A stretch of DNA of 64,000 bases from Aquimarina sp. AU474 (GTDB taxonomy: Bacteria; Bacteroidota; Bacteroidia; Flavobacteriales; Flavobacteriaceae), in NCBI RefSeq assembly GCF_900312815.1, contig NZ_OMPE01000008.1:434001-498000 (forward strand). The letters run 5' to 3'. The notes below the pieces were generated by a model that saw only the letters and a list, made by a program, of their open reading frames with translations, was not told the origin of the DNA and made no database searches. The position numbers and the translations under genes were made by a program. How positions within the stretch are numbered: position 1 is the first letter of the stretch; every line of letters starts with the position of its first letter. Shown here in pieces: positions 15,252-48,839 of this stretch.

Positions 15252-15261
15252 TAATACTTAT

Positions 15262-15333: not shown

Positions 15334-15339
15334 CAAATT

Positions 15340-15412
15340 GCTCCATTAGCATAGTGGTTTAGTGCATCCGGCTTTCTACCGGAAGACAAGGGTTCGATTC
15401 CCTTATGGAGTA
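15340..15412 (+). tRNA. tRNA-like gene, anticodon TTC (Glu), with unusual U37
   Basis: Acceptor stem GCTCCAT/ATGGAGT (G1-U72 wobble), D stem GCAT/GTGC, perfect anticodon stem TCCGG/CCGGA, T stem AAGGG/CCCTT and T loop TTCGATT. The anticodon loop CTTTCTA gives TTC at 34-36 but U at 37, as in the first gene of the cluster. No CCA is encoded. Confidence 0.6.
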
Positions 15413-15475
15413 CAAAATGAGGTATAAACTCAGTGGATTTTTTAAAATAATGTATAACCAATTCATCTAATTATT

Positions 15476-27822: not shown

Positions 27823-30174
27823 ATGAAAAATGTTACATTGATTTTATGGAGCTTCTTTTGTGTATTACAGTTAAGTGCTCAAACAGGAGCTGTAAAAGGA
27901 AAAATAATAGATGGAAATACGAAACAAACATTACCTTATGTAAATGTGATCATCAAATCTGGAGAAAATATCACTACAGGGGGCATTACAAATGATAACG
28001 GTGGTTTTTCAATCAAAAAAATCCCCTATGGAAATTATACAGTTAATATCCAGTACATTGGATATGAAACCAAAGAAATGGCAGTTGTATTATCTGCTAA
28101 TAACAAAGCCATAAACATAGGTAATATTGCTATTGTAGAAGATGTTTTATCGCTCGATACCGTAGAAATTACTGCAGAACGCTCAACCATTGAACAAAAA
28201 ATTGACAGAAAAGTAATTAACGTAGGTAAGGATTTGACCACAACTGGCGCATCGGCTAGTGATATTATGGGTAATATTCCCTCTGTTACTATTAATCAAG
28301 ATGGTGATATATCCTTACGAGGAAATGATAATGTTCGCATTCTTGTTGATGGAAAACCCACTAGTCTTACGCCAAGAGATTTATTACAGCAAATACCAAG
28401 TACTTCCATTAAAACCATAGAGTTAGTCACTAATCCTTCGGCAAAATATAATCCAGAAGGAATGAGCGGTATTATTAATATTACTTTAAAAAAGAATACC
28501 AATCTAGGTTTTAATGGAGCTGTAAATCTTGGTTTTACCTATGGTGAACGAGATCGTTATAATAATTCGCTAAATCTAAATTATGGCAATAAGAAACTTA
28601 ATCTTTATGGGAGTTATGGTAATCGTTTCGGAGATCAAATATCCCGAGGTACAGTAACTCGTACAGTCGAGCAAACCAATCAGTTAACCAAAAATATTAA
28701 TAATCAAACATCACATCTAATTAAAATGGGTTTTGATTATTTTATTAATAGCAGAAATACCTTTTCTGTATATACTAATCAAAATATATCCAAGCGTTTA
28801 TCTGATGGTAAAAAAACAATCAGTTTTTTTACAAATCCAGGATTCAATTTTGAACAGTTAGATGATTTACAAACGGATAATCTTAATTCTACCTATAATT
28901 TTGACTATAAGCATACCTTTTCTGAAAATCATGCTATCGAATTAGAAGTTGACCTTAACCGATTAACAAACAAAACTAATAACGACTTTACATTTCTTGC
29001 AAATGCACCTACGGATGATTACGAAGAATTTATAGATGATGATCGAACGAATACGATTCTAAATTTGGATTATGAAAATCCCATTTCTAAAAATTCTACC
29101 TTAGAATTAGGCATAGAAGCCCGTATGAACAAAGTGGATAACACTTATACAACAAGCCGAATAGATTTTAGAAATTCTAATTTCTCTTTTGACAGAGATA
29201 TTTATTCATTCTACACCACTTTTAGTCAAAAATGGAATAAATGGCAGTATAATATAGGAATCAGGTTAGAAAATTATGAAACTGATAATCAGTTTACAGA
29301 AATAGGGGGTGAGCGCAACACTTTTGATGATCAACAATTTAATATATATCCGTCCGGGTTCTTAAAATATACTCCAGATGAAAGTGCCAAAAACAGCTAT
29401 ATCCTAAGTTTTAGTAGACGGGTAGATAGACCTTCGTTAAACCAAATAAATCCTATTCGAAGAATTAGTACACCTCAAATTATCATTACTGGAAATACTA
29501 ATTTATTACCACAGTTTACTAACTCTATTGAGTTAAATTATAATAGAACACTTGATAAAGGAAATATAACCTTTGGGGGTTTTTATAGAAGAATTAATGA
29601 TGAGATTAATAGAAGAGGCTTTTTTGATGATGAAAATCCAACAGTATTAATCCTTGATTACGACAATTTTGATACTACCAATGCTTTGGGTCTCGAGTTA
29701 TCGCTTAACTATAAAATCAATGATTGGTGGCGTTTTAACGGAAGCATTGATGCGTATTCAAGAAATCAAGAAGGGATTATCGAAAACAATAGAGTACAGG
29801 TAGATAATACTCTTTTTAATGTGAAACTAAGTAATAATTTTAAGGCTACAAAAGCACTTACATTTCAATTATTCACACTGTATACCGGTAAGCAACGTGT
29901 ATTACAGTATGAATTGAAAGAAAACTTTTTTATGAATATTGGTGCTCGCTATAGTTTTGCAAAAGGAAAAGGAAGTATTAACCTCAATTTCAATGATATC
30001 TTTAAAACTCAACGTTTCGCTTTTAATGCGTTTAGAACTATTATACAGGAAGGAGAGTATAAAAGGGATAGTCAGTCGGTATTTTTGGGATTATCCTATC
30101 GATTTGGAATAAAAAACAAAAAAGCAAAACGTAAAAAACGGGATGCTAATGAAAAAGCTGATAAATTTTTATAA
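27823..30174 (+). CDS. TonB-dependent receptor-like outer membrane protein
   Basis: A 783-residue protein: signal peptide (1-20), CarboxypepD_reg-like domain (about 22-105, GKIIDGNTKQTLPYVNVII), plug domain (about 110-230, with SDIMGNIPSVTINQDGDISLRGNDNVRILVDGKP) and a beta-barrel of the outer membrane protein beta-barrel family to the C-terminus. No substrate can be named. It is not accompanied by a SusD gene, so it is not a classic SusCD pair. It sits in an operon with YceI and the next secreted protein, next to a divergent LytS/LytTR pair. Confidence 0.92.
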   Translation: MKNVTLILWSFFCVLQLSAQTGAVKGKIIDGNTKQTLPYVNVIIKSGENITTGGITNDNGGFSIKKIPYGNYTVNIQYIGYETKEMAVVLSANNKAINIGNIAIVEDVLSLDTVEITAERSTIEQKIDRKVINVGKDLTTTGASASDIMGNIPSVTINQDGDISLRGNDNVRILVDGKPTSLTPRDLLQQIPSTSIKTIELVTNPSAKYNPEGMSGIINITLKKNTNLGFNGAVNLGFTYGERDRYNNSLNLNYGNKKLNLYGSYGNRFGDQISRGTVTRTVEQTNQLTKNINNQTSHLIKMGFDYFINSRNTFSVYTNQNISKRLSDGKKTISFFTNPGFNFEQLDDLQTDNLNSTYNFDYKHTFSENHAIELEVDLNRLTNKTNNDFTFLANAPTDDYEEFIDDDRTNTILNLDYENPISKNSTLELGIEARMNKVDNTYTTSRIDFRNSNFSFDRDIYSFYTTFSQKWNKWQYNIGIRLENYETDNQFTEIGGERNTFDDQQFNIYPSGFLKYTPDESAKNSYILSFSRRVDRPSLNQINPIRRISTPQIIITGNTNLLPQFTNSIELNYNRTLDKGNITFGGFYRRINDEINRRGFFDDENPTVLILDYDNFDTTNALGLELSLNYKINDWWRFNGSIDAYSRNQEGIIENNRVQVDNTLFNVKLSNNFKATKALTFQLFTLYTGKQRVLQYELKENFFMNIGARYSFAKGKGSINLNFNDIFKTQRFAFNAFRTIIQEGEYKRDSQSVFLGLSYRFGIKNKKAKRKKRDANEKADKFL

Positions 30175-30193
30175 TAATACAATGTTAGAAATA

Positions 30194-30997
30194 ATGAAAA
30201 AAATAACTTTTTATATTACTATAGTCTTGGGTATAAACTCAGTGATAGCACAACAAATAGACACAAAAAATAGCCCCGTAGCAAAAGGATTAATCCATAA
30301 AGTAGTTGCAAAAACTGGAAATTATGATTTGCTTAAAAAACTAAAAGATGTAGCATTCGAATATACTTTTTATAGTACAAAAACCAATAAAAAAGATGTA
30401 TCTACCGAACGTTATATTTTCGACGGAGAAGTATCTTGGGGGAATTATAAAACCCACCAATATTTTGTATTTCCGAATACAACCGAAACTGTAACTCAAT
30501 TTTATGATGGTAGTACGCAAACCAATGTTACACTTGGAGATAAAAATATAACAGATCTAAAGGTATTAAAAAGTGCTAATTTTTTACGTAAAGCTAATTT
30601 TTATTGGTTTACGATGATGCCTAAATTATTGGATCAAGGAATTGTATACGAGTTATTACCCAATAGAACGCACAACCGAATAAACTATAAAATTGTAAAA
30701 ATAGGATTTAACAAAGGAGTAGGCGAGGTTCAGGATGAATTTATCCTATACATTAATCCAAAAACCTTTCTTATAGATAGATTTCTATTTACAGTAAAAG
30801 GGTTTATTCCCGGAGTATTACTTATGGAGGCAGAGTACAAAACTGTTAACGGCTATACATTTATGGCCAAGCGTAAAGTAATTTCTGGCGCCCAATGGGA
30901 TGGTAGTATTACGGGCGATGTGTTGTTTGAGCAAACTTCAACAAATGTGAAATTCACTAATGGTTTCACAAAAGAAATACTAAGTAATATACAATAG
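30194..30997 (+). CDS. Secreted protein of unknown function (LolA/outer-membrane-sorting-like fold possible)
   Basis: The open frame starts at 30143, inside the TonB receptor gene, but the ATG at 30194 begins a clean signal peptide (MKKITFYITIVLGINSVIAQ) and is preferred (267 residues). The rest alternates beta-strands (WGNYKTHQYFVFPN; FYDGSTQTNVTLGDKN; DEFILYINPKTFLIDRFLFTVKG). This resembles LolA/LppX-like lipoprotein-binding folds, a weak impression. It is the third gene of the YceI-TonB operon. Confidence 0.75.
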   Translation: MKKITFYITIVLGINSVIAQQIDTKNSPVAKGLIHKVVAKTGNYDLLKKLKDVAFEYTFYSTKTNKKDVSTERYIFDGEVSWGNYKTHQYFVFPNTTETVTQFYDGSTQTNVTLGDKNITDLKVLKSANFLRKANFYWFTMMPKLLDQGIVYELLPNRTHNRINYKIVKIGFNKGVGEVQDEFILYINPKTFLIDRFLFTVKGFIPGVLLMEAEYKTVNGYTFMAKRKVISGAQWDGSITGDVLFEQTSTNVKFTNGFTKEILSNIQ

Positions 30998-31029
30998 TTT
31001 AGAGAATATTTAATACCCAAAAACGGTGC

Positions 31030-32148
31030 TTATGTATGATCTTTCTTTTTCATCCCAAATAAGAATCTGGGGATTTTAAAAGGGTAAATTACCAATTTAT
31101 AAATGATTATAATTAACGGAAAAGAAGTTAAAATTAATAGTACAATTTTTGATGAGATACTCATATCTAATTGAATAATATAATACCCAAGTATAATAAT
31201 AACAGTTTGGTGTAAAATATAAAAAGGGTATATGGCTTCATTACATTTTTGAAGTATTATACTCTTTTTGTTAAACCAAACCTGTCCATACCCAAGTAAA
31301 GTAGTTACAAGTGTCCAACTCACTAATGCACATACCAAATACCATATATCCCATCTATTACCCAAAGAAAGATATGGCGAAATGTACTCCCCAGGTAAAA
31401 GATAATAACTATAAAACAGGATGAAACTTATAACAAAATAGATGAAATTAAATTTTCTATACCGCTGTAAATAATTCCAAATGTTCTTTGATGAAGTAAA
31501 TAACATACCCGAAATAAAAAAATAGCTATAATAAAAGGTTGAAGAGAGGTTTGTAATATCTTTTGAGTCGCTTGGATATATTTTTTTCAAAAATATAGTT
31601 ATAGTAACTAAAGGAATTAACCATAATAATATTCCATATTTTTTAGAAGTAATATGATCAAGAAGATGTATTAGTTTTTCAGACTTAGATGATTTCAAAT
31701 ATAAAATTAATGGAATCAATATAACCGACATAATGAATAAGTTTTCTATAAACCACAAATGATTTGTTTTGAAAAAAGAACCATTAATATATATATCGAG
31801 ATAAGAAGCATATTTATCTATATGCTCATAATAAGTTTGCGGAGGAATGATAAAAAGAATTCCGAAAATTAGTGGGATGACTAAACGTATACTTCGTTCT
31901 TTGAAAAATTGTTGCCAAGTTCTTTTTGAAAATGCAAACATGGTTCCTGTACCGGATATTAAAAATAATAGGGGTAATCTAAATTGTTCAAAAAACACCA
32001 TTATATCATCAAGTGTTTTGCTGGATGTTGAATTCATTATATGAAAACCATCACCATTAAATGGCATTCCTATATGATGTAGGTACACAGCCAGAATAGC
32101 AATTACACGTAACCAATCCAAATCGTATCGTCTTTTTTTTACTGTCAA
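31030..32148 (-). CDS. Membrane acyltransferase of the acyltransferase 3 family
   Basis: A 372-residue protein with about ten hydrophobic segments and the N-terminal acyltransferase 3 signature (LDWLRVIAILAVYLHHIGMPF, with the family's catalytic-type His) and LPLLFLISGTGTMF. The family O-acylates sugars, peptidoglycan or lipids. The acceptor is not apparent. It lies upstream (same strand) of nothing obvious, with the LytTR membrane protein gene behind it; the two may be functionally linked. Confidence 0.92.
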   Translation of the reverse strand: MTVKKRRYDLDWLRVIAILAVYLHHIGMPFNGDGFHIMNSTSSKTLDDIMVFFEQFRLPLLFLISGTGTMFAFSKRTWQQFFKERSIRLVIPLIFGILFIIPPQTYYEHIDKYASYLDIYINGSFFKTNHLWFIENLFIMSVILIPLILYLKSSKSEKLIHLLDHITSKKYGILLWLIPLVTITIFLKKIYPSDSKDITNLSSTFYYSYFFISGMLFTSSKNIWNYLQRYRKFNFIYFVISFILFYSYYLLPGEYISPYLSLGNRWDIWYLVCALVSWTLVTTLLGYGQVWFNKKSIILQKCNEAIYPFYILHQTVIIILGYYIIQLDMSISSKIVLLILTSFPLIIIIYKLVIYPFKIPRFLFGMKKKDHT

Positions 32149-32254
32149 AATATTTGTTTTTTTGTTTCGTTGGTAAACCTAAAAACAAATTAGTTTGAGA
32201 ATATATTTTTGTGATCAATGACAAGCAGAAGTGACCAAATACAAAGTATTTTAC

Positions 32255-33133
32255 TTACATACTGGAATAGGTACTATTAAAACTAGTAATATTTGATCTA
32301 GAAACGGGAATAGTAATAGCACAGTTCGTTAATGATAATTGATATCCTTGAGCATTCCCCGAAATAGATTCTATAGAATGTAGGTTTACCAAATAGGAGC
32401 GATGTACTTTAAATATTTGTGCAAAAGATTTTAATTGTTCTTCGAGCTCCTTAAGGGTAATACGAATTATGATTTTATTAATTCCAGTAGATGAAGACAT
32501 GAATACTTCTGTATAATTACTTTCTACTTTAGCAAAAAGAAAATCATTAATTTCAAAGTCAAAGTTTTCATTAGATATTGGACTTTTAATAGTGATGGAT
32601 AGGTTCTTTTTTTTGGATATACTTAGGGATGGTATTTCTTTTAAACGGGACCTATGTTTATTTATAAGCCTTTCTAGATTAAGAGGCAGTATAATGATTA
32701 ATAGAAGTGATCCTACCAAAAACGTATTGCGAATTTCTTCCCAAAAATATCTAAAAGACCAATTATTTGGATTTATATAAATTAAATCACGGATTAAAAA
32801 ACCCACTATTCCGATAATTAAAAGAATAATGGATAGATTCAAAATTTCCTTTCCTAATGTCCACATTACATTATTCGCAACATTCTTGTTGATCAGACTA
32901 AAATATAAGTAAGCTATAGGAAAAGGAATACAGGCATGAATTAACAAAATGTAGATAGAATTGATTCTATGCTCGGCTACATTAACCTCAAAAGGTTCAA
33001 AAAAGAAAGAAAACAAAAAACTAGAAATAGACAAACTCAATAATAACAAAATTAACTTTTGTTGATTATCGTAATAATAGGGGTAGGGTTCATTAAAATA
33101 CCTCCTGATTTCGGTCAATTTTAATTTCATCAT
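32255..33133 (-). CDS. Membrane-anchored LytTR DNA-binding regulator
   Basis: A 292-residue one-component regulator: four hydrophobic segments (about residues 28-165), a linker, and a C-terminal LytTR domain (FLFAKVESNYTEVFM; FKVHRSYLVNLHSIESI; ITIPVSRSN). There is no receiver domain. It would sense at the membrane and bind DNA directly. It is divergent from the protease cassette at 33421, and shares the intergenic palindrome at 33312, so it is the obvious candidate regulator of that cassette. Confidence 0.9.
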   Translation of the reverse strand: MMKLKLTEIRRYFNEPYPYYYDNQQKLILLLLSLSISSFLFSFFFEPFEVNVAEHRINSIYILLIHACIPFPIAYLYFSLINKNVANNVMWTLGKEILNLSIILLIIGIVGFLIRDLIYINPNNWSFRYFWEEIRNTFLVGSLLLIIILPLNLERLINKHRSRLKEIPSLSISKKKNLSITIKSPISNENFDFEINDFLFAKVESNYTEVFMSSSTGINKIIIRITLKELEEQLKSFAQIFKVHRSYLVNLHSIESISGNAQGYQLSLTNCAITIPVSRSNITSFNSTYSSM

Positions 33134-33311
33134 CTTAAAAAGCTAAATTAACTTTTTTAATAGAATTGATTAGGGGTTTTATCAAAGTCTTCTTTTACCA
33201 AAGTTGATCAAACACTTCTTAATAGATTTTATAGAAAGTTTTAATAAATCACAACTAGTTAATATTGAGTTAAATAAAACTGAACATTTTATACTTTTTG
33301 TAGTTTTAAGG

Positions 33312-33333
33312 TATACTATTTTTCTATAGTATA
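33312..33333. promoter_or_regulatory. Palindromic operator candidate before the protease cassette
   Basis: TATACTAT / ATAGTATA with a 6-nt spacer, between the divergent LytTR regulator gene and the four-gene cassette. It is AT-rich, so chance is possible. Confidence 0.35.
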
Positions 33334-33420
33334 TCACCCCGTATTATTATATAAAATAAAATGAATGTTGTTTGTTTTTACATCAACAAACAGTATTTAT
33401 GTGATGAAAATTTAAAAAAT

Positions 33421-34128
33421 ATGAGTAAGTATCTTGTAATTTTTATGTTGTGGTCGATTGTAATTCATGGCCAATCTATATTTAAAACTTTAGAACCAGA
33501 ATCATTACCTCCTAATTGGGAGAGTTGGATTGATAGTACACCTATTTCAGGGTTCAAGAAACAAGGAATACAGTTCGTTTCAAGTCAGAAAAAGATTAAT
33601 CCGTTAATGGCAAGTGTTTTTCTCCCTAAGAGTATCAGTAAACAGAAAATTTGTTTAAGAATTACTTCCATTGATGGCAGGTACCGAGCTAACTTAATCT
33701 ATAAAATAGATCAGGCAGAAAATGGGATGTTGAATTTAAGTATACCTACTAAATATCAAGAAAAATTGAAACACTACAAACCTGATGAAGTAGCTTTACT
33801 TGCTACTATGGATGTATTATGTGACTCCAATATCGGAAAAAATTTAATTGCCAGTTGGGAAAGAAAAAAGAATTTGAGTGAATTTCAAATAAATTTTAAT
33901 TCAAGAAAAGATGTTAACCTTCTTGTTGTTGAAAATGGTAGGGTACTTTTAGACAAGCCTTTTGAGGATTTAAATTTAAAAAAAGATAATCCTGTGAGTT
34001 TTAATAGAAGTTGTAAAGTGCCTATAAATATAGTTAGCAAGGATTCCAGCATTTTTGTACGTGAAACTTGGGTTAAAGAAAATGGAAAAATACAAATTAA
34101 AGAATATGAATTTCCAATCATTTTATAA
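33421..34128 (+). CDS. Secreted protein of unknown function, first gene of protease cassette
   Basis: A 235-residue product from the ATG at 33421, which begins a signal peptide ending HGQ; an ATG at 33361 would add 20 residues before it. The mature part is beta-rich, with two conserved-looking blocks (WESWIDSTPISGFKKQG and KICLRITSIDGRYRANLIYKI). No family recognised. It overlaps the next gene, and its product should act in the periplasm or at the surface with the other three. Confidence 0.75.
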   Translation: MSKYLVIFMLWSIVIHGQSIFKTLEPESLPPNWESWIDSTPISGFKKQGIQFVSSQKKINPLMASVFLPKSISKQKICLRITSIDGRYRANLIYKIDQAENGMLNLSIPTKYQEKLKHYKPDEVALLATMDVLCDSNIGKNLIASWERKKNLSEFQINFNSRKDVNLLVVENGRVLLDKPFEDLNLKKDNPVSFNRSCKVPINIVSKDSSIFVRETWVKENGKIQIKEYEFPIIL

Positions 34129-35002
34129 TTCAATACGATTTCCAAATTGGAAAAAAAAAATATTTCCATACGTATTCTTTTCCTTGGCATTACTTCTATT
34201 TGGTACTGTTATTTATTTATTCTCAAGATCTAGTTTAGAAACAAGTTATGAGCTAAATGCGATAACTGAAGGCGTTTCAATTAATACAGGTAATAATTCA
34301 GAATTGATTTGGTTTTTTGAAAATGCTAAACTTATTAGTAATCAAACCAAGGATTCTTATTTCTCAGGATCGTTGAAGTTTAACGATTCTACTACTATCA
34401 CAATCAAAAGAGTATCATTAGGTCTTTGTGCTATAAGTATACGAAATACAGTAAATACAAGTGTTGGGACATTGCATTATGATGCTTATAAAAAACGATT
34501 AGGTAAGTCAATCCATATTGTACTTGATAGTATTCAATATCGATCCCATCAAGGTTCAACAATTGTATTTCCACTCAACAAGATAAATGGTTTTATTTCT
34601 ACACCAAGTCCTGTGGCTCAAGAAACAGATATGAATGTTCCAATTTTACGAGAAGGAAAGGTTTCCTTGCTAAATACATCATTTAATAAAAAGACCGTTT
34701 ATCAGGCTGGAGAATATATTTTACATACTGGCGACCAGTTTAAACTTAAGGAACGAATTAGTCCGTATTATGGTTTTTTAACAATTAACGAAAATCCTTG
34801 TATGAATTTAAATTATAAGGTAGCGGGCTCAAAAGGATATATCCAGAGTCCTGGTGGGCTAATACATTCTGCTGAATCCACGTTATTGCATAAACTTCAA
34901 AACGATATTTTTTATCAATGGTTATCACTTGTTTTTGGTGTTTTGGTAGTAATTGCCTCTTTATTTGGTGCTGTTAATGATGTAAAGGATATGTTTAAAT
35001 GA
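34106..35002 (+). CDS. Two-TM envelope protein of unknown function, second gene of protease cassette
   Basis: A 298-residue product from the ATG at 34106, overlapping the previous gene by 23 nt; ATG 34082 or 34055 are alternatives. One transmembrane helix near the N-terminus (VFFSLALLLFGTVIYLF) and one at the C-terminus (WLSLVFGVLVVIASLFG), with a roughly 220-residue beta-rich domain between, presumably periplasmic. No family recognised. It overlaps the next gene by 4 nt (ATGA). A plausible role is the membrane anchor or signal relay of the cassette. Confidence 0.75.
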   Translation: MNFQSFYNSIRFPNWKKKIFPYVFFSLALLLFGTVIYLFSRSSLETSYELNAITEGVSINTGNNSELIWFFENAKLISNQTKDSYFSGSLKFNDSTTITIKRVSLGLCAISIRNTVNTSVGTLHYDAYKKRLGKSIHIVLDSIQYRSHQGSTIVFPLNKINGFISTPSPVAQETDMNVPILREGKVSLLNTSFNKKTVYQAGEYILHTGDQFKLKERISPYYGFLTINENPCMNLNYKVAGSKGYIQSPGGLIHSAESTLLHKLQNDIFYQWLSLVFGVLVVIASLFGAVNDVKDMFK

Positions 35003-36303
35003 ATAAAATTGTTTTAACATATCTATTTTCTCTTTGTACTTTAATGCAATTTATTGATGGACAGCAACAGGTATATACCAATACGTATCCACCTTCTCAA
35101 GGTTTTTTGATAGGTAATGATAATTTTTTCGAGTATGTGGTTATTCCTGTTGCTAATCGAAATTCAATTATCGGAAAGCAAAGGATAAACATGTCGGGGC
35201 CGAAACAGATCTTTGCGGAGATGGAAGAATTCGATGAACATAATAAGTTGGCAATACTTAAATTAAATAAAAAAATACGAGCTAGAAATTTGAATTATGA
35301 GGTAAATGACAGCAGTAAAGCAATAACGATAGTATATATTGATAAAAATGGAGAATATGTTTCGCAACATATGAAAGGAGAGGTTATAAATCTCAATCAA
35401 GTGCATTTGAAATTAAAAAATGATATAGAAATTGATAGTATTCCACTTGGTAGCGTAGTTTATAATCGAGGAAGTTTAATCGGGGTTATTAATGCAATAT
35501 ATCCAATAAAAAATGAATTAAACTTGATTGAGATATCTCAATTTAATAAAACTATTTCCGATTTTCTTGAAGAAAAAAAACCTAATGAACTAGTTATAAA
35601 TTATAATACAATAGATACTAGTTTAAAATTATCCTTAAAGACGAAACATAAAGGAGTAAGTATATATTTTGGTGGAATTAAAAAACACTTAGATGTAATA
35701 AAAACTATACGTTATGGGTTTGATCGAAATGATTTAGCAATTCGACTTAATCCAAATTTTATTAAAAACAAAACAAATTATTTCTTTCCAACACCGAAAA
35801 ATTCTAAGATCTATTTTCAAGTAGAAACGATTGATGGTCATAAAGGAAGTATAATAGGTATAAACACTATATCTTCGATTTCCAAAATAAGGGTAACAGA
35901 TTTAAATATAGCATATAACCTCTTATTTAAATGCACTAAGGTTAACTCTCAAATTCAAGCTCAGCGTATACGTAATAACATCATTAGGAGGGATATTATG
36001 TCTAAAGTACCGTGTGTTGTATGTCAGTCAGTAAATTCCTGGAACTCTAGAGAGCTCTCTAATACTGATTATACACCAATAGAACTACAAAACTTGTTAC
36101 GTCAGATAAAAAAAATAAAGTATAAACCGAATGACGCAGAAGAATACGTTGTTAGTGAGGTTTTTTTTCAAAACCATAAAAGCGATAATGCATTTTGGTA
36201 TACAAATTTAGATAAGAATACAAAAAAGGTATTGTTTGAACTTTTATTAGAGGACCTTACGAATACTCCGCTTTTTTTAGAATATGTCAACAATGGATAT
36301 TGA
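34999..36303 (+). CDS. Secreted trypsin-fold pseudoprotease, third gene of protease cassette
   Basis: A 434-residue protein with signal peptide (to about residue 21). Residues 30-170 follow the trypsin-like layout of the next gene: FEYVVIPVAN at the His site, KLAILKL at the Asp site, and PLGSVVYNRGSLIGVI at the Ser site. All three catalytic positions differ (by my alignment Ala52, Lys83 and Leu150), so it should be inactive. The C-terminal ~220 residues are beta-rich (IYFQVETIDGHKGSI), ending with a CVVC pair and helices. It overlaps the previous gene by 4 nt and the next by 20 nt. Confidence 0.7.
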   Translation: MNKIVLTYLFSLCTLMQFIDGQQQVYTNTYPPSQGFLIGNDNFFEYVVIPVANRNSIIGKQRINMSGPKQIFAEMEEFDEHNKLAILKLNKKIRARNLNYEVNDSSKAITIVYIDKNGEYVSQHMKGEVINLNQVHLKLKNDIEIDSIPLGSVVYNRGSLIGVINAIYPIKNELNLIEISQFNKTISDFLEEKKPNELVINYNTIDTSLKLSLKTKHKGVSIYFGGIKKHLDVIKTIRYGFDRNDLAIRLNPNFIKNKTNYFFPTPKNSKIYFQVETIDGHKGSIIGINTISSISKIRVTDLNIAYNLLFKCTKVNSQIQAQRIRNNIIRRDIMSKVPCVVCQSVNSWNSRELSNTDYTPIELQNLLRQIKKIKYKPNDAEEYVVSEVFFQNHKSDNAFWYTNLDKNTKKVLFELLLEDLTNTPLFLEYVNNGY

Positions 36304-38071
36304 AATTAAAAAATACACACCGTTTTTTAATCTTTTTGACAGGATTATTACAACAACTTTTATAATTGCTTTTTTACATAATACAAACTGCTATTCTCAA
36401 AAAACCGTATATGTAAATTCGATAGAAATAGGACAGGGTTTATTGCGAAAAAGAACATTTGATTCTTCAAAGTTTTATCACCTTTTAAATACCGAGAACT
36501 ATCTTATTTTGCCATATCATGTAATGGGTCAGAAGTCTGCTTCAAAAGCACAAGTTACAAGTCAAGAAGGTTTAGTTTCTGCGGGTAAGTTAATCAAGTC
36601 TTACCCACAGTATGATGTTGCAATATTAGCCCTACAAGGCGATGAAATCAAGGCAGCCTCCTGGAAGAGTTCTAGAGAAATTCAAGAACATTTAACAATT
36701 GATACTCATGGAACAATTGAAACTGTAAACGTTAGAGGCTCGGTAGATATTGTAGATGTTAGAATCACAAAGATTGTTGGGAGTGAGTATATATATATTC
36801 TTCCTGTAGATAGTGATGATTCTTTTACTAGCGGAATGAGTGGTTCCTTACTAAAAATTAATGGAATAAGTAGTGGAATGTTATTAGAGACCAATTCTAC
36901 TAGTGGAGAAGGTAAAGTAATACGATTAGACTTTATGGAAACTTTGGTTGCTCCTTTCTTTAGGTTTTATCAAAACAAGGAATTCCATCAGGAAGAACTA
37001 TCAAAGAAATTACGAGAGCTACAGGGTGATATTAGGTATGCATATACAGAGGGGTATATTATTCTAAGAGAACCCTTTCAAGAAAAACTTTTTTACCTAT
37101 CTAGGTACGTGAAAAGTATAAGTTTTGGTGAAAAATATAGTACTCCAGAGTTTAAAATTCAGATTACAGATTTAATAGATCATTATTTTAACAATATCGG
37201 TTCTGAATTAAAAATCCCTTACGGAAAAGGTTCTTCAAATTTTTCTGTATGGTTTGAATTAAAGGATAATACATATACAAGTCCGGTAGAAGTAAATCTA
37301 TTTTCATCCAGAAACAGCATTAATAAAGATTTAATAATAAGCTCAACAAGCGAAGATTTGAGTGCGCCAACGATCTATGTTGATTACAAATACAAGGCTC
37401 GTTTTAATACGATACCAGGAACTATCGAAACAATTGTTTTTTTTGATGATTTAGAAGGAAACAATTATTCTTTACCCACTAATAAAATTTTTGAGATTTT
37501 TAACGTAGAAGTACCCAAAGGATCGAATAAATTAACTTTGAAGTTTATAATGGAAGATAACTCTATAAAGCGGTACGATTACAAAATCATGGATTGGGAA
37601 TATTATAAATTATTGGATTCTAAAAATACCATAATCGATTATGTAGACAGAAAAAAAATGCCCCTAATTTTATGTCAATGCGCTCAAAACGAGGAATCTC
37701 TTGGGAATATGGGCAATCTAAAATATGTTTTACGAAAAAAAATTAAACATTTCCCAGTAACCTACTGTTATGATATTTTGTCTTACAAAAACAATCGCTT
37801 TACTAATACTACAATTAAATATACCAATTGGAATGCAATTAAGAGAATTCGTCTTAAAGGTAATAACCCTATATTCAATGTATTGATCGATATCAATACA
37901 GCCAAAGCGCAGGAAAATCTTTCATATAATAACCTTTATAAAGAAACCTTTAAAGCATTTCGTGTGTTTTTTAAAATTTTAGATAAAAATCCCAAAAACC
38001 TTATGATGACACTTGAGTTTTTTGATGGCACATATAGTAAGATCTTACCGATTGACATCAAAAAGCTGTAG
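36284..38071 (+). CDS. Secreted trypsin-like serine protease with C-terminal beta domain, fourth gene of protease cassette
   Basis: A 595-residue protein with an N-terminal hydrophobic export segment (about residues 20-38). The catalytic triad of a trypsin-like peptidase is visible: His79 in ILPYHVMG, Asp111 in YDVAILAL and Ser186 in SGMSGSLL. After residue 230 come a helical linker and two beta-rich modules to the C-terminus. It overlaps the pseudoprotease gene by 20 nt, so translation is coupled. Its last 14 nt overlap the convergent M23 gene. The substrate is unknown; the pseudoprotease may regulate it or present substrate. Confidence 0.82.
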   Translation: MSTMDIEIKKYTPFFNLFDRIITTTFIIAFLHNTNCYSQKTVYVNSIEIGQGLLRKRTFDSSKFYHLLNTENYLILPYHVMGQKSASKAQVTSQEGLVSAGKLIKSYPQYDVAILALQGDEIKAASWKSSREIQEHLTIDTHGTIETVNVRGSVDIVDVRITKIVGSEYIYILPVDSDDSFTSGMSGSLLKINGISSGMLLETNSTSGEGKVIRLDFMETLVAPFFRFYQNKEFHQEELSKKLRELQGDIRYAYTEGYIILREPFQEKLFYLSRYVKSISFGEKYSTPEFKIQITDLIDHYFNNIGSELKIPYGKGSSNFSVWFELKDNTYTSPVEVNLFSSRNSINKDLIISSTSEDLSAPTIYVDYKYKARFNTIPGTIETIVFFDDLEGNNYSLPTNKIFEIFNVEVPKGSNKLTLKFIMEDNSIKRYDYKIMDWEYYKLLDSKNTIIDYVDRKKMPLILCQCAQNEESLGNMGNLKYVLRKKIKHFPVTYCYDILSYKNNRFTNTTIKYTNWNAIKRIRLKGNNPIFNVLIDINTAKAQENLSYNNLYKETFKAFRVFFKILDKNPKNLMMTLEFFDGTYSKILPIDIKKL

Positions 38072-38774
38072 ATATAACCTTCTTCACTTTCTGATTTCTT
38101 ATAGGCTCACCTCTTTCTACAAATACATCGTCTTCATAATAATTCAAAAATTGAGCGGGAAGTCCCAACCCTTTATTTAAAGGTTCTGATGTTTCTTGTA
38201 AATGATAATGTAGATGTGGTTCGGTAGAAGCACCACTATTACCAGCTTGCCCAATTTCCTGACCTTTAATGACAGTATCTCCAACAGCAACGATTATTGA
38301 TCCTTTTTTTAAATGTGCTAGTATCGATGTTTCACCATTTAAGTGATCGATAATAATATAATTACCAACCTGAGTACGATTCACAATACCGGGTTGATTG
38401 TCTTCAACAGTATTTTCAATGGCTACTACTTTTCCATTACCTGGTGAGTTTAAACGTTTTCCAAAACAATAATAATCTTCATTTTTACTGCCATCTCCTG
38501 CATAGCTTTTTCGGTTTTGTACAATCAACATATCATAAGCATACCTTTCTCTACGAGAAACAAAATGATGAGCGCCTGCACTATGTGTTCTTCCTGCATT
38601 TACAGCATACCATTCTTCTTCAAAAGGTAATTCTAGATCCGTAATTGTTTGATAGTTTAGATAAATGTCTTCATCTAGTGTGCCTTCATCTCCAATTAAA
38701 GTATCCGTACAAGATATTAGTAATAAGATCAAAGTGATACATAAAGTATATAATAACAGCTTAATAGATTTCAT
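38058..38774 (-). CDS. M23-family peptidase lipoprotein
   Basis: A 238-residue lipoprotein (lipobox LLISC, Cys22) with a LytM/M23 zinc peptidase domain: HHFVSRRERYAYDM region with the H-x(n)-D metal motif, NGKVVAIENTVEDN, DHLNGETSILAHL, GQEIGQAGNSGASTEPHLHYHLQ carrying the HxH motif. Such enzymes cut peptidoglycan cross-links or activate amidases. It is probably anchored facing the periplasm. The last 14 nt overlap the protease gene on the other strand. Confidence 0.92.
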   Translation of the reverse strand: MKSIKLLLYTLCITLILLLISCTDTLIGDEGTLDEDIYLNYQTITDLELPFEEEWYAVNAGRTHSAGAHHFVSRRERYAYDMLIVQNRKSYAGDGSKNEDYYCFGKRLNSPGNGKVVAIENTVEDNQPGIVNRTQVGNYIIIDHLNGETSILAHLKKGSIIVAVGDTVIKGQEIGQAGNSGASTEPHLHYHLQETSEPLNKGLGLPAQFLNYYEDDVFVERGEPIRNQKVKKVISTAF

Positions 38775-38780
38775 AATGGA

Positions 38781-39494
38781 TTAAAATTTAAAGTTAATAC
38801 CAAGATTAATTTGATGTTGCAGCTCTCTGTATGCATTAAAAATTTGAAGCTTATCATAATTTAAATTATAGCTTACTTTTAGATCAAAGTGATTAGAGAG
38901 ATTGTATTTGTATTCTGTTGTCCATAAAACACTTTGGTACTTGCTTATGGAATAAAAGTTTTCTTCAAATGTGGAGGTTCTCCATAGTATAAATGGGATT
39001 GTTATTTTGGAAGAAAGTGATTGTTTGTTATTTATTTGATACACAAATCGCCCTGCAACGCCAAGTTTTTGTTGAAAATCGTATTGTTTCCAATCAAAAT
39101 AAGAAGAGACATTGGTTTGTGTCTGTAGACCCACATGTACTTTGACTTTATCATTTTTATAAACTTGTTTTAATGAGCTTATATTTAGAATTATTTTAGA
39201 ATATTGAGGGTTAGGCTCTGGAATTATATTGGTTTCTAATTCTGAATTTAGATAATCCAACTGTACCTCAAACAGCTTTTCTCTTTTGGTCATGCGAGTA
39301 TATCTAAATTGATAGTTGATTGCATTATAGTCATAGCGCCTTACCGGAGCAAAAGCTAAATTTTTAAGGTAACCAAAAGTGAAACCTGTAGAGAATTCTA
39401 AAGTATTCTTTTTGGGTTCGTTTTCTACCTGAGAAAAAACTGTTGTTATTGAAAATGTAAAGGCCGAAAACAAATAGAAGATTTTTTTGCACAT
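38781..39494 (-). CDS. Putative outer membrane beta-barrel protein
   Basis: A 237-residue protein with signal peptide (ending VFSQ) and alternating beta-strands with aromatic ends throughout (YNAINYQFRYTRMTKREKLFEVQLDYL; KVHVGLQTQTNVSSYFDWKQYDF; QINLGINFKF with a C-terminal Phe). This fits a small outer-membrane barrel. No family named. It lies 6 nt upstream of the M23 gene, in the same operon. Confidence 0.75.
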   Translation of the reverse strand: MCKKIFYLFSAFTFSITTVFSQVENEPKKNTLEFSTGFTFGYLKNLAFAPVRRYDYNAINYQFRYTRMTKREKLFEVQLDYLNSELETNIIPEPNPQYSKIILNISSLKQVYKNDKVKVHVGLQTQTNVSSYFDWKQYDFQQKLGVAGRFVYQINNKQSLSSKITIPFILWRTSTFEENFYSISKYQSVLWTTEYKYNLSNHFDLKVSYNLNYDKLQIFNAYRELQHQINLGINFKF

Positions 39495-39560
39495 AAATAT
39501 TTGAAATAATCGAATTAGAAATACGTGTTAGTTTTTCTAGTTATAGTTTATCAAAAGTGT

Positions 39561-40445
39561 TTATTCTATTCCGAATATATCTTTTAATAGACCTGCACCT
39601 AGCGATATTGCATCATCATGACTGCCGCCATCAGATAGGATTACATTTGCACCTTTATCATTTAAAAATTGAATTTCTTGAGTAGAAAGCGGTCCGGCTG
39701 CTTCATCTCTGTTGCCATGCACATAAGTTACTTTTGAAAGACTTAAAGCACTATCTAGTTTATCTGTATACCGATTGAACGCTAATCCGGCAATTAATCT
39801 ACCCATGTTTCTTTCTTCTACAGTATCAAAATCGGGGTTATTTTCTAACTCAACAGTGTAATTGCCATCATTGTCATAAATGTGAATTGGGAATTCCCCT
39901 TCGCTAAGGGCTTGCCAGGCGTCACTATCAGCATTAAGTCGATTACCTAGTATAAGATAACCATCAGCAATATCAATTCCATGAGTAGCAATCAATTCTT
40001 GTACAATTAAAGCACCAAATGATACTCCAAGTACGTAAATTGTTTTTCCTTGTTGATTTTTAAAATAATCAACAACACGTTTTATATTAGAGATACTTTG
40101 CAAATCGTATTCTTTTGCCTGTTCAAAAGTAATATCTGCACTTGTGAATAGCATTGGAGTTTTTGTTTGTACCTGATGCACCATTACATATAATGCTGAT
40201 TGTATACCCAGTTCAATTACCGTTTGATTAGAAGTAGTATCGTCATCCAGTTCAATACTGGGCCCAGCTTGTGCATGAATAACTACAATATCTCCCTCTA
40301 GATTCCCATAGAATTTGGCAATATCTGATATTTCATCAAATGAATTTGAAGGTTCTGTAACAGTAGTATCATCTTTACTACATGACAAAAGAACAACTAA
40401 CAGAATGGTGTAAGCGATTAAATGTAAGTGACTTATATTTTTCAT
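39561..40445 (-). CDS. Alpha/beta hydrolase-fold lipoprotein
   Basis: A 294-residue lipoprotein (lipobox VLLSCSKDD) with a hydrolase-like core: a VLGVSFGALIVQEL nucleophile elbow (GxSxG), an acidic region NLYVHGN-like strand (VTYVHGNRDEAAGP) and a late His in DGGSHDDAIS. The predicted Ser-Asp-His triad suggests an esterase or lipase on the outer side of a membrane. It is the first gene of the minus-strand trio with the barrel protein and M23 peptidase. Substrate unknown. Confidence 0.82.
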   Translation of the reverse strand: MKNISHLHLIAYTILLVVLLSCSKDDTTVTEPSNSFDEISDIAKFYGNLEGDIVVIHAQAGPSIELDDDTTSNQTVIELGIQSALYVMVHQVQTKTPMLFTSADITFEQAKEYDLQSISNIKRVVDYFKNQQGKTIYVLGVSFGALIVQELIATHGIDIADGYLILGNRLNADSDAWQALSEGEFPIHIYDNDGNYTVELENNPDFDTVEERNMGRLIAGLAFNRYTDKLDSALSLSKVTYVHGNRDEAAGPLSTQEIQFLNDKGANVILSDGGSHDDAISLGAGLLKDIFGIE

Positions 40446-40586
40446 GTGATTTTGTTTTAAGGCAAAAAAACAGAAATAGAGGCTTCAAAAAATAAATATT
40501 TGATAACCGTTACATATTTATTGATCATCGTTGAAGTAACTTATTAAACAAATAAATTATGCTTTCCTTTGTTTAAAATATTTAAA

Positions 40587-41609
40587 ATGAATACCTCTAA
40601 AATAGCATTAGTAGCAGTACATGTATTCATCTGGTTATTGAATTATTGGTTTATTGCGATTGTAAGTCAATTTAATTGGAATGGTTTTACCTATGATTCG
40701 GGTAGTTTAGCTTATGCCTATGCGTATGGCCTTTTTTTTAATGCCGTTTTATTTTATGTACAAGCCCTTTGGTTAGCACCTAAAATGTACATCCGAAATA
40801 AAAAGTTGAAATTTTATCTAATTTCTACAGTCATAATCACTACAATTTCTCTGATTGAGACCTATTTTGATTATATACTCTATAATATTTATAGTATAAA
40901 TACAGAAGAAGTATTAGGAAGTTTCATTACCAATACTATATTTCATGTACTATATAGTGTAGCTGGTTTTTACTATCTGTTTAAATTAGAGCACAAAAAA
41001 TCAGAAAAAGTAAAACAAAAACTTCTAGAAGAAACTTATAAAACCGAATTAAAATATCTGAAAGCTCAATTAAACCCTCATTTCTTATTTAACGGTATCA
41101 ATAGTGTGTATCATTTAATTGGTAAAGATGATGCTTTGGCCAAAGAGACCTTGCTACAATTTTCGGGTTTGTTACGCTATCAACTATATGAAAGCAATAC
41201 TCATATTTTACTAGAAAAAGAATTAGATTACTTATTAAAATATATCAAAATTGAAGAGACTCGTAGAGGTTCAGACATTCGATTAGATTATGATATCAAT
41301 TCAGAGAATCCTACAATGAAATTAGCACCTTTGCTGTTAATTCCTTTTATTGAGAATGCCTTTAAACACTGCAGTAATCATATAGATAGTAGTGCGAATA
41401 TAATCAAGATAAAAATTGAAGAAGCGGGAGGGAAGCTTCATCTAAATGTTACGAACAGTTATGATAAGTTAATTAATGAAAATATAGCAGGGGGAATAGG
41501 ATTAACCAATGTACGAAAAAGACTATCATTATTATATCCCGATCAACATGATCTAAATATCAAAAAAGACAACGTTAATCATATTGTAAACCTTTCTATT
41601 GATTTATAG
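40587..41609 (+). CDS. LytS-type membrane sensor histidine kinase
   Basis: A 340-residue product from the ATG at 40587 (the longer frame begins at a TTG that lies inside a -7-like element). Four hydrophobic segments (residues about 10-135), then LKAQLNPHFLFNGINSVYHL and a HATPase domain (LLLIPFIENAFKHC; GGIGLTNVRKRLSLLYP). The response regulator gene follows after 8 nt, so they form an operon. Probable target: the esterase gene downstream. Confidence 0.93.
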   Translation: MNTSKIALVAVHVFIWLLNYWFIAIVSQFNWNGFTYDSGSLAYAYAYGLFFNAVLFYVQALWLAPKMYIRNKKLKFYLISTVIITTISLIETYFDYILYNIYSINTEEVLGSFITNTIFHVLYSVAGFYYLFKLEHKKSEKVKQKLLEETYKTELKYLKAQLNPHFLFNGINSVYHLIGKDDALAKETLLQFSGLLRYQLYESNTHILLEKELDYLLKYIKIEETRRGSDIRLDYDINSENPTMKLAPLLLIPFIENAFKHCSNHIDSSANIIKIKIEEAGGKLHLNVTNSYDKLINENIAGGIGLTNVRKRLSLLYPDQHDLNIKKDNVNHIVNLSIDL

Positions 41610-41617
41610 CGTACAAA

Positions 41618-42292
41618 ATGAAACAACTAAACTGTTTAATTATCGATGACGAACCCATTGCCCGAGAAGGTATTGCAGAATATTGTAAAGAGGTTTCATT
41701 TTTACATGTTACTGCACTGTGTAAGAATGTATTGCAAGCCAATCATTATCTGGAAGAAAATCAAATTGATTTAATTTTTTTGGATATCAATATGCCCATT
41801 GTTTTAGGTATCGATTGGTTAAAGGAACTAAAAAATTCTCCTTCTGTTATTATGACTACCGCCTATGAAGAATATGCTCTCGAAAGTTTTTCATATAACG
41901 TCTTAGATTATTTAGTAAAGCCCATTTCATTTGAACGTTTTTTGCAGGCAGCAAATAAAGTGCATCAATATTACGATGATAACCCTAAGGATAGCGTTCT
42001 GTTTGTGAAAAGCGACAAACAGCTTAAAAAGATAACCCTAAAAGATATTCTATTTGTAGAGGCGATGCAAAATTATATCAAGGTAATAACCACAGAAGAG
42101 GCTATAATTACGAACATGCCATTAAAAAGTTTTAAAGAACTTTTACCCGAAGAGGATTTTATACAAACTCATAAATCGTATATCGTATCAAAATACAAAG
42201 TAGACAAAATTATAAAGAATCAAATTCTTATTAAAAATTATGAAATCCCAATTAGCGTACGCTTAAAAAAATCTGTTTTAAGTAGTCTCTAA
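41618..42292 (+). CDS. LytTR-family response regulator
   Basis: A 224-residue regulator with receiver domain (Asp in IFLDINMP, MTTAYEEYALE, LDYLVKPIS) and LytTR DNA-binding domain (ILFVEAMQNYIKVIT; FIQTHKSYIVSKYKVD). Partner of the kinase just upstream. The gap to the esterase gene holds candidate control sites. Confidence 0.94.
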   Translation: MKQLNCLIIDDEPIAREGIAEYCKEVSFLHVTALCKNVLQANHYLEENQIDLIFLDINMPIVLGIDWLKELKNSPSVIMTTAYEEYALESFSYNVLDYLVKPISFERFLQAANKVHQYYDDNPKDSVLFVKSDKQLKKITLKDILFVEAMQNYIKVITTEEAIITNMPLKSFKELLPEEDFIQTHKSYIVSKYKVDKIIKNQILIKNYEIPISVRLKKSVLSSL

Positions 42293-42401: not shown

Positions 42402-42491
42402 CATGTGTACCCGTCAAAAGTTATAATTATATCGATTTAATAAAATATTGTGTTTGAAATTAATATTAATTTAATAAATCTGTTAAATAAA

Positions 42492-42551
42492 TAAGATTAA
42501 TTATGTTTCTTTATTTTATTATGCTATCATAATAAAAACTAATTAATCTTA
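42492..42551. promoter_or_regulatory. Nested inverted repeat before the esterase gene
   Basis: Outer 12-bp arms TAAGATTAATTA / TAATTAATCTTA (42492-42503, 42540-42551) enclose inner 10-bp arms TTTTATTATG / CATAATAAAA (42514-42523, 42528-42537) with a CTAT loop. The structure ends 11 nt before the ATG. It could be an mRNA 5' hairpin or a double operator. Confidence 0.5.
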
Positions 42552-42562
42552 AAATCAACACA

Positions 42563-44770: not shown

Positions 44771-44789
44771 GAATTATTCGGAATTTACC
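44771..44789. other. Short spacer before terminator; gap 44771-45453 described
   Basis: The 683-base gap after the esterase gene holds the terminator at 44790, a doubtful ORF at 44988-45290, and a small hairpin TTTACTT/AAGTAAA at 45427-45443 just before the amidohydrolase gene. I see nothing else in it. Confidence 0.4.
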
Positions 44790-44825
44790 AAAAGATGCTT
44801 CAACTCTAGAGTTAAAGCATCTTTT
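44790..44825 (+). terminator. Intrinsic terminator after the esterase gene
   Basis: Long hairpin: AAAAGATGCTT / AAGCATCTTTT (11 bp) around an inner AACTC/GAGTT (5 bp), followed by a T-rich tract. Confidence 0.85.
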
Positions 44826-44987
44826 ATTTTAGTTTATGCTATGTAGTACATATTTAACAATAGATGGAGTATGGTATTTCATGAGAAATGAGCATAAAAT
44901 CTAAACCATATAATTGAAAATTTTTCAACCATGGCTTGATTAACGCTCAATTTACTTTCTTTTAAAATAGTAATTCTCACTATAATT

Positions 44988-47746: not shown

Positions 47747-48637
47747 TTATGGTTCCAGAAAATATTCTTCAAAACTAGAAATGAAATCGTGTATATATTT
47801 TTTATTGCGATGTTTCTTTTTTACGACCAAGTAATGTTTTCGTTGTAATCCGTTCTTTCCTATACGTTTAAATAGTAACTCTTTGGATAATTTAAAAGGA
47901 GTTAATTGCCATTTTGGAGCGCACATAATCCCCATGTTGGCTTGGATCATTGATAATGTAATTTCGGTAAAGGGAATTGCAGAAATTTTAATGGGATGTA
48001 TTTTATGAGGCCTTAGAAAATGTTCATAAACAGCTACACCTTCTAGTGGAAAAGAATTGATTAACAAATGTACATTTTCAAAATGACTGGCTTCCAGATA
48101 CTCTAGATCACGTAATTGATGTTCTTTATGAATAATAGCAAAAATTTCATCTTTAAAAACAGGAATACTAGAAAGTTCATCAGATTCAGGTTTTGATGTC
48201 ACAATGGCAATGTCTATATCTTCAGATAACACTTGTGATATGGTTTGATGTGTTGCCCCTAGGGTTATATCTATATCAATTTCTGGATATAGAATTCCCA
48301 TTTTTTGAATAAACGATGGTATGGAATGAAAAAATGATTGACATTCGGCACTCAACCTAATAGCACCTTTAGAGCCCTCTGTAATATGTTTTATGGCACT
48401 AAAACCTTCATCTATAGAATCGAACAGTGTATTAGCCAATTTATATAGCTCTGTACCTTCTTGGGTTAATTCCCATTTATTTCTTGTTCTATGGAAGACT
48501 TTAAAACCCAACCGCTCTTCTAACTCTCGTAATTGATGACTTAAAGCCGACTGTGTTAAAAAGAGTTTTTCGGTAGCATTAGCGATACTGCCTTCTTCTG
48601 CTATCGTTTTTATTAATCTGAAATATTTCAGTTCCAT
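47747..48637 (-). CDS. LysR-family transcriptional regulator
   Basis: A 296-residue regulator with N-terminal winged helix-turn-helix (MELKYFRLIKTIAEEGSIANATEKLFLTQSALSHQLRELEERLGFKVFHR) and a substrate-binding-like effector domain (about 90-296). It is divergent from the racemase gene, with a palindrome between them, the standard LysR arrangement for a regulated neighbour. The effector is unknown; an amino acid is plausible given the target. Confidence 0.95.
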   Translation of the reverse strand: MELKYFRLIKTIAEEGSIANATEKLFLTQSALSHQLRELEERLGFKVFHRTRNKWELTQEGTELYKLANTLFDSIDEGFSAIKHITEGSKGAIRLSAECQSFFHSIPSFIQKMGILYPEIDIDITLGATHQTISQVLSEDIDIAIVTSKPESDELSSIPVFKDEIFAIIHKEHQLRDLEYLEASHFENVHLLINSFPLEGVAVYEHFLRPHKIHPIKISAIPFTEITLSMIQANMGIMCAPKWQLTPFKLSKELLFKRIGKNGLQRKHYLVVKKKHRNKKYIHDFISSFEEYFLEP

Positions 48638-48673
48638 AATTACAAAGATAAGTTACTTACAAATAGGTTGTAG

Positions 48674-48688
48674 TTGAAATAATTTCAA
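48674..48688. promoter_or_regulatory. LysR-type operator between regulator and racemase genes
   Basis: Perfect palindrome TTGAAAT-A-ATTTCAA containing the T-N11-A LysR core, in the divergent gap, 36 nt from the LysR start. Confidence 0.6.
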
Positions 48689-48741
48689 GTATAGTTTTAT
48701 TTATATCAATTTCGAAACTATTCAAGCATTGCTATTCATCA

Positions 48742-48749
48742 TAGATTTG
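48742..48749 (+). promoter_or_regulatory. -7 element for the racemase gene
   Basis: TAGATTTG fits TAnnTTTG. It lies inside the N-terminal extension of the longest frame and so supports the ATG at 48840 as the start. No clear -33 TTG at the right distance. Confidence 0.4.
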
Positions 48750-48839
48750 TCAAAACAAAAATTATATCGAACGTGGCCAAAATATTCAAATAACCTGTTA
48801 GGTGGACAACTAAGATATATAACTAAAAATACTGTGAAT

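What the first reader, a model, noticed from the sequence alone, without database searches (positions are those of the whole stretch)
33421..38071. Four-gene envelope cassette with an active trypsin-like protease and its dead paralogue
Seen: four overlapping genes (overlaps 23, 4 and 20 nt) encode a secreted protein, a protein with one TM helix at each end, a trypsin-fold protein whose triad positions are Ala, Lys and Leu, and a second trypsin-like protein with an intact His79/Asp111/Ser186. Both protease-like genes share the same layout and beta-rich C-terminal parts, so the pair looks like a duplication in which one copy lost catalysis. Known: pseudoproteases often regulate active paralogues. 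Inference: a regulated periplasmic proteolysis unit, perhaps anchored by the two-TM protein and controlled by the divergent LytTR membrane protein. I recognise no described system with this order.
Basis: partly seen in the sequence, partly recalled or inferred. Interest (0 to 1): 0.72.

Follow-up and report, generated by a model that had tools for sequence, protein, structure and literature searches.

The report
Mobile envelope protease module, dead paralogue
This is one copy of an apparently undescribed gene module, scattered across distant bacteria, that seems to export a trypsin-like protease together with two conserved partner proteins; this copy also carries a second, catalytically dead protease-like protein not seen in the other copies found.

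Summary
In detail: four overlapping same-strand genes (overlaps 23, 4, 20 nt); the fourth product keeps His79/Asp111/Ser186, the third has no triad residue. But the four-gene set is not the conserved unit. The core is A (secreted), B (one helix at each end) and C (triad-bearing trypsin-like protease): all three in 22 of 23 non-redundant loci, plus a 24th, in alpha- and gammaproteobacteria and this genome, in changing order with A-B always adjacent. A further gene D is in 18 of 23 and missing here. C keeps the triad in 22 of 22. The dead protease was found only here (347 ORFs around 23 other loci tested). Its trypsin fold is supported, though homology is remote and the model was given an alignment with active relatives. 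The cassette is accessory: in the genus the B profile matched only this genome of 66, and the closest relative at this site lacks it. The LytTR gene also occurs without it. Best reading: a horizontally scattered envelope-proteolysis module whose protease is aimed by a variable C-terminal part; here a dead relative probably modulates it. Trigger and substrate are unknown.

The parts
33421..34128 (+). Gene A: ~235-aa protein with a signal-like N-terminus (by eye); core module component
   Evidence: ORF; 20 members aligned, Cys78, Gly86, Tyr88, Cys183, Cys198 and neighbours conserved in at least 90%; next to B in 24 of 24 loci, profile-match gap -79 to +90 nt; no Pfam family
34106..35002 (+). Gene B: membrane protein, helix at each end, ~200-residue all-beta middle presumed periplasmic; core component
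   Evidence: ORF; AlphaFold mean pLDDT 71.7, helices 15-41 and 268-289; no PDB fold match (best Foldseek E 0.03; VIA Z at most 5.4); homologues in 22 other loci and L115
34999..36303 (+). Gene C': trypsin-fold pseudoprotease, residues about 20-194, triad lost; C-terminal part remotely like that of C
   Evidence: no counterpart near 23 other loci
36284..38071 (+). Gene C: trypsin-like protease with H79/D111/S186, signal-like N-terminus (by eye) and a long C-terminal part; core component
   Evidence: Trypsin_2 13.5 bits, below the 27.6 cut-off; triad in 22 of 22
32255..33133 (-). LytTR membrane protein, divergent neighbour; probably not part of the module
   Evidence: LytTR E 8.6e-16; 14 of 57 genus genomes incl. 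own match at E<=1e-20
38058..38774 (-). M23-family peptidase gene, convergent, overlaps the end of C by 14 nt; a genus gene, not part of the module
   Evidence: Peptidase_M23 E 7.8e-18; 12 congeners with near-full-length matches at 55-90% identity

Best explanation
An accessory, horizontally scattered envelope-proteolysis module. Shown from sequence: A and B always sit together and nearly always with C; C keeps the catalytic triad; B has a helix at each end; modules sit on plasmids and in chromosomes of distant lineages; C's C-terminal part differs between lineages; this copy has a dead trypsin-fold protein between B and C, and no D was found. Inferred: all act outside the inner membrane; B anchors a complex with A that senses an envelope signal or holds C; C is a secreted serine protease directed to its target by its variable C-terminal part; D, where present, restrains or assists C. 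In this copy the dead protease most likely modulates C (activator, decoy or target-binding subunit), perhaps doing the job that D does elsewhere.
For: Linkage with changing gene order: 23 loci, A>B> in 23, C in 22, D in 18, six arrangements that include C. Independence: 13 loci were found by the B profile alone; with profiles built from earlier loci A was found beside B in 13 of 13, C in 12, D in 11 (L053 repeats the Cereibacter sequence, so 12, 11 and 10 of 12 without it). A 24th locus on a Paracoccus plasmid has D-D, C, A, B, found with profiles that did not contain it. Tight packing. Triad 22 of 22. C tails: ankyrin repeats in L062 (Ank E 1.1e-10, over cut-off) and a weak bacterial SH3 in L040 (E 6.5e-5, below cut-off), DUF7258 repeats in L010 (over cut-off) and Filamin-like in L009 (just below cut-off). 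Scattered distribution and absence at the syntenic site of the closest relative. Pseudoprotease fold. Precedent for a dead trypsin-family protein activating an active one: MamO/MamE (PMC4794232, abstract and passages).
Against: No activity, localisation or interaction is shown. Signal peptides are by eye. C' was found in one genome only, so its role cannot be read from conservation; it may be drifting. The link C'-C is remote (negative HMM and pairwise N-domain tests; hhalign probability 10.7%). The C' model was built with an alignment containing active relatives, which favours that fold; C itself was not folded. D's replacement by C' is guesswork: the Vibrio copies (L009, L010) show neither. 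B has no recognisable fold. In D's absence test the own-genome search had no positive control.
Confidence: 0.5

Rival explanations
1. Envelope-side anti-phage or anti-element defence module: A/B sense an intruder at the envelope and C cleaves a target to block entry or kill the cell.
For: Scattered on plasmids and in variable regions; some neighbours are defence-like: type IV restriction enzyme beside L008, Upx beside L028, HNH nuclease in L010, caspase-like protein in L027, PbeA/restriction-like helicase in L040. 45 PADLOC families matched among 94 flank ORFs against 7 among 94 control ORFs from other parts of the same contigs.
Against: The family count is a poor measure: one L057 protein, which looks like an ordinary RecQ-type helicase (my reading), matches 25 families and one L008 protein 13, while single control families matched up to 6 ORFs. 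Plasmid flanks are in the test set only; the 94 of 136 flank ORFs were picked by hand, the 94 of 120 controls at random. Of 20 flank ORFs traced one by one, 7 matched PADLOC at E<=1e-5 besides the restriction enzyme of L008. Many loci lie among metabolic genes (by eye). No PADLOC match in A, B, C', C. No copies found in viral contigs or phages by the searches made.
Confidence: 0.17
2. A secreted weapon or nutrient-acquisition protease: C is released and aimed at other cells or polymers by its variable C-terminal domain, with A, B and D as helpers or self-protection.
For: C-terminal parts vary between copies; D is tail-to-tail with C in 16 of the 18 loci that have it. Umbrella toxins also join trypsin-fold domains to variable lectins (PMC11062931, passages).
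Against: B is a two-helix membrane protein without known export function; no secretion gene was noticed beside the loci (by eye); UmbA lacks the complete triad whereas C keeps it.
Confidence: 0.15
3. C' is a decaying duplicate without function; the working unit is just A-B-C.
For: C' found in one genome only; catalytic residues gone; sequence far diverged from C.
Against: An intact 434-codon frame with signal-like start, a predicted beta-barrel core, and overlaps of 4 and 20 nt with both neighbours, which suggests coupled expression.
Confidence: 0.2

Closest known systems
MamE/MamO of magnetotactic bacteria
   Same: Active trypsin/HtrA-type protease with a trypsin-fold pseudoprotease in one envelope system; the dead one activates the active one without catalysis (PMC4794232, abstract and passages).
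   Different: That pair serves magnetosome formation and MamO has a transporter domain; here the partners are A and B, and the wider family has no pseudoprotease in the loci examined.
HtrA/DegP/DegS periplasmic proteases
   Same: Trypsin fold; the Foldseek matches of the C' model begin with DegQ, HtrA, DegS.
   Different: No PDZ match in C or C' (Pfam); Trypsin_2 score of C below the curated cut-off; fixed partners A, B and often D.
Umbrella (Umb) toxin particles of Streptomyces
   Same: Secreted trypsin-fold domains (UmbA, no complete triad) with variable lectin domains (PMC11062931, passages; 8w20_E is row 39).
   Different: C keeps the triad; a membrane protein is a core part; no polymorphic toxin was seen beside the window copy.
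Trypsin-containing conflict systems of Kaur et al. 2020 (Trypco, vWA-MoxR, NucA)
   Same: Trypsin-like peptidase with co-occurring dedicated genes (PMC7159879, passages).
   Different: Those have NTPase, vWA or nuclease components; none matched in the window's A, B, C', C or seven flanking genes.

Membership tests
Trypsin_2 (Pfam PF13365) | Profile match above curated cut-off | tested here: not met
   C 13.5 bits against 27.6; C' no match
Trypsin-fold (chymotrypsin-like) proteins | Double beta-barrel fold | tested here: met
   C' range 20-194, Foldseek probability 1.00, VIA Z to 11.5; caveat: predictor was given C-family rows. C itself not folded
Trypsin-type active proteases | His-Asp-Ser triad | tested here: met
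   C 22 of 22; for C' not met
HtrA/Deg proteases | C-terminal PDZ domain | tested here: inconclusive
   No PDZ match in C or C' by Pfam at E<=10; a remote PDZ is not excluded
MamE/MamO-type active/dead pair | Dead protein stimulates the active protease | not testable with these tools
   needs biochemistry
Umbrella toxins | UmbC-type polymorphic toxin beside UmbA/UmbB | tested here: inconclusive
   Nine flanking window genes scanned with Pfam show none; other loci only read by eye
Trypco/VMAP conflict systems | vWA, MoxR or STAND NTPase components | tested here: inconclusive
   None in A, B, C', C, LytTR, M23 gene or seven further flanking window genes by Pfam; other loci not scanned one by one
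Known anti-phage defence systems (PADLOC 2.0.0) | Match of a component to a PADLOC model | tested here: not met
   A, B, C', C: 0 families at E<=10; D not scanned

The most novel reading that the evidence does not exclude
A previously undescribed, mobile, phylum-crossing periplasmic effector system: membrane-anchored sensor A-B, a triad-bearing protease C with exchangeable targeting part, and a regulator slot (D elsewhere, a repurposed dead protease here), used against invaders or competitors at the cell envelope.
Probability: 0.2. Interest if true: 0.85.

Novelty: new variant of a known kind. Interest (0 to 1): 0.6.

Why it matters
Three of its four protein families (A, B, D) had no Pfam match above cut-off in the members scanned (A five, B three, D four), and the linkage makes a testable system: a small module with an intact-triad protease, clear partners and an existing copy on a plasmid of the laboratory strain Cereibacter sphaeroides 2.4.1. 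If envelope defence or antagonism is its role, it would extend proteolytic effectors, better known from the cytoplasm (general knowledge), to the periplasm. The window's dead protease is a natural case of a pseudoprotease joining an otherwise single-protease system.

Tried and rejected
Tried without result: P0004 against viral contigs and phages; C of L010 and L008 against viral contigs; A of L009 against phages; D and C of the alphaproteobacterial group against viral contigs; C of L060 against plasmids. The viral-contig scans work through short peptide patterns and can miss remote copies. Weak B-profile hits in 12 of 395 genomes of the phylum were rejected: partial, E 0.0015 to 0.092, and no A or C profile match in those loci, which reach only about 1.5 kb each side. 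The G350 fragment (31% over 92 residues, stop inside) was rejected: other genes around it. B fold search: rows are spike proteins, toxins, NAD kinases and the like at E>=0.029 or Z<=5.4, read as chance. D sought in the own genome: none at E<=1, without positive control. GC of the cassette 0.301 against 0.314 +- 0.017 in the window, and no exact repeat of 11-20 bp shared by 30991-33430 and 37991-38150, so no mark of recent insertion by these tests. A second protease-like gene in other copies: 347 ORFs of 200 or more codons within 3 kb of 23 loci compared with the C-domain profile gave the 22 C proteins and then nothing above score 22.5 (15 columns) against 26.8 (137 columns) for C'. Literature: eight searches; their listings show no paper on this gene set; the locus names were partly guessed. 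Two strong single-member PADLOC matches (PD-T4-3, REase_II) were not traced to their loci. Dropped rows: L027, L031 and L053 as duplicates of L026, L025 and L026.
Full report
What was claimed and whether it is there. Four overlapping genes at 33421-38071 are real, with overlaps of 23, 4 and 20 nt. I name them A, B, C' and C. C carries His79, Asp111, Ser186; C' has no triad residue in the matching columns. B has a helix at each end of an all-beta middle in its model. The neighbours are a divergent LytTR membrane protein (LytTR E 8.6e-16) and a convergent M23 peptidase gene that overlaps C by 14 nt; further out lie a TonB-type outer-membrane protein, a DUF6503 protein, an acyltransferase, and a histidine kinase with a LytTR response regulator.

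Fold of C'. The AlphaFold model is confident only in parts of the N-terminal domain (mean pLDDT 49.5; ten-residue blocks from 21 to 90 lie between 63 and 87, 91-140 between 33 and 59, 141-190 between 70 and 84). The listed matches are trypsin-fold proteins: Foldseek best E 2.3e-5, probability 1.00 (50 of 779 rows shown); VIA Z up to 11.5 over 157 residues, range 20-194 (50 rows shown). Since the predictor was given C-family rows, this is not independent. The sequence tests are mixed: profile comparison of the C-family domain with C' gives E 0.003 over 137 columns, score 26.8 against a best of 20.2 in 200 shuffles; the C-terminal parts of C' and C are alike above all 300 shuffles; but HMM search with the C family and pairwise comparison of the two N-domains are negative. 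I accept a trypsin-fold pseudoprotease related to C, with the age and route of duplication open.

The conserved unit. A plasmid search with C found relatives in Vibrio and Pseudoalteromonas at 24.5-29.5% identity, and beside each lay homologues of A and B. Further plasmid searches gave Rhizobium, Tistrella and Cereibacter sphaeroides and Bosea. One genome scan added Roseovarius, Pseudorhizobium and Sulfitobacter (4 loci, one of them Tistrella again). All 13 new loci were fetched. With profiles built before these loci were known, A lay beside B in 13 of 13, C in 12 and D in 11. L053 repeats the C. sphaeroides sequence and was dropped from later counts, as were the duplicates L027 and L031.

Over 23 non-redundant loci: A before B in 23; C in 22 (missing in L058); D in 18 (missing in the window, L009, L010, L058, L062). 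Arrangements: A B C with D convergent, 6; D and C convergent, C divergent from A B, 10; A B C, 3; C A B, 1; C D A B, 1; C divergent from A B with D after B on the other strand, 1; A B alone, 1 (those profiles include the members). A 24th locus, on a Paracoccus plasmid, has two tandem D genes. The profile matches of A and B lie -79 to +90 nt apart in all 24, and the only larger gaps inside a module are the window's B-C (C' lies there), L009 C-A (1265 nt, the long tail of C itself), and 191 and 226 nt in L040 and L054. Linkage kept through this reshuffling argues for a functional unit. Of 22 C proteins compared, 22 keep His, Asp and Ser; the Paracoccus one keeps them by eye. No second protease-like ORF with a score like that of C' was found within 3 kb of the 23 other loci (347 ORFs).

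Distribution. Near the window it is rare: P0004 in no other of 91 relatives, in 397 family genomes only a rejected fragment besides itself; B profile only own genome of 395 in the phylum apart from 12 rejected weak hits and only own genome of 66 in the genus. In the closest relative at this site (G016, M23 gene 90% identical) both flanks match, window 29164-30992 and 38115-42276, but acyltransferase, A, B, C' and C have no tblastn match in the 18 kb taken; the region is otherwise rearranged, so I do not claim a clean insertion site. D was not found in the own genome (no positive control). The LytTR gene has homologues of 48-64% identity in five congeners without B match.

How it may work. Inferred: A, C, C' and D have signal-like N-termini (by eye) and B is anchored by two helices, so the module acts in the envelope. 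C's C-terminal part varies: ankyrin repeats in L062 (over cut-off) and a weak SH3 match in L040, DUF7258 repeats in L010 (over cut-off), a Filamin-like match in L009 just below cut-off, and a very weak galactose-binding match in the Pseudoalteromonas protein (E 0.16). That suggests exchangeable targeting. D, tail-to-tail with C in 16 of 18 loci, could be a restraint on C. C' could activate C as MamO does MamE (PMC4794232, abstract and passages), compete for substrate, or bind a partner in its cleft without cleaving, as UmbA is proposed to do (PMC11062931, passages). None of this is shown here.

Defence? Flanking ORFs (94 picked by hand of 136 of at least 150 aa) gave 45 PADLOC families against 7 for 94 random of 120 control ORFs from the same contigs. 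The count is inflated by two helicases (13 and 25 families) and the control ORFs also matched often (two families in 6 ORFs each). Traced hits: type IV restriction enzyme beside L008 with a weak HNH match next to it, HNH in L010, caspase-like in L027, Upx in L028, PbeA-like helicase in L040, a weak viperin-like match in L058, and a DpdF/RecQ-like helicase in L057; 13 of the 20 ORFs traced singly had none. Plasmids are only in the test set. I treat defence as possible, not shown.

Novelty. A, B, C' and C match no family above cut-off in Pfam or NCBIfam and none reliably in PADLOC or PHROGs; four D members had no Pfam match above cut-off and two of them none in PHROGs. Eight searches of the held library listed no description of this gene set; most subscription papers are not covered. 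The component type (envelope trypsin-fold protease, pseudoprotease partner) is known; this composition is not known to me.

Noticed in passing
L115:6372-7603: Paracoccus plasmid copy of the module has two tandem, diverged D genes overlapping by 4 nt.
   Followed up: partly
L062:5383-6966: C protein with ankyrin repeats in its C-terminal part (Pfam Ank E 1.1e-10); no D found at this locus.
   Followed up: partly
L058:6608-8435: A and B without C or D in the 14.5 kb examined; a neighbour at 5526-6503 has a weak viperin (pVip) match.
   Followed up: partly
window 29164-49505 versus L095: Both flanks of the cassette match the closest congener, but blocks 42448-44830 and 47759-49505 lie on the other side of the M23 block there: a rearranged region.
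   Followed up: partly
L009:10219-11499: Protein with a weak metallo-beta-lactamase match (E 0.0015, below cut-off) just downstream of the Vibrio tubiashii copy.
   Followed up: partly
L116: C. sphaeroides MBTLJ-13 plasmid record carries shorter or split annotations of the same genes than strain 2.4.1.
   Followed up: no
window 39561-40445: Alpha/beta-hydrolase-like protein (by eye) with a weak AbiH match below cut-off (E 0.0005).
   Followed up: no
window 15179-15413: Three adjacent tRNA genes (Asp, Pro, Glu).
   Followed up: no
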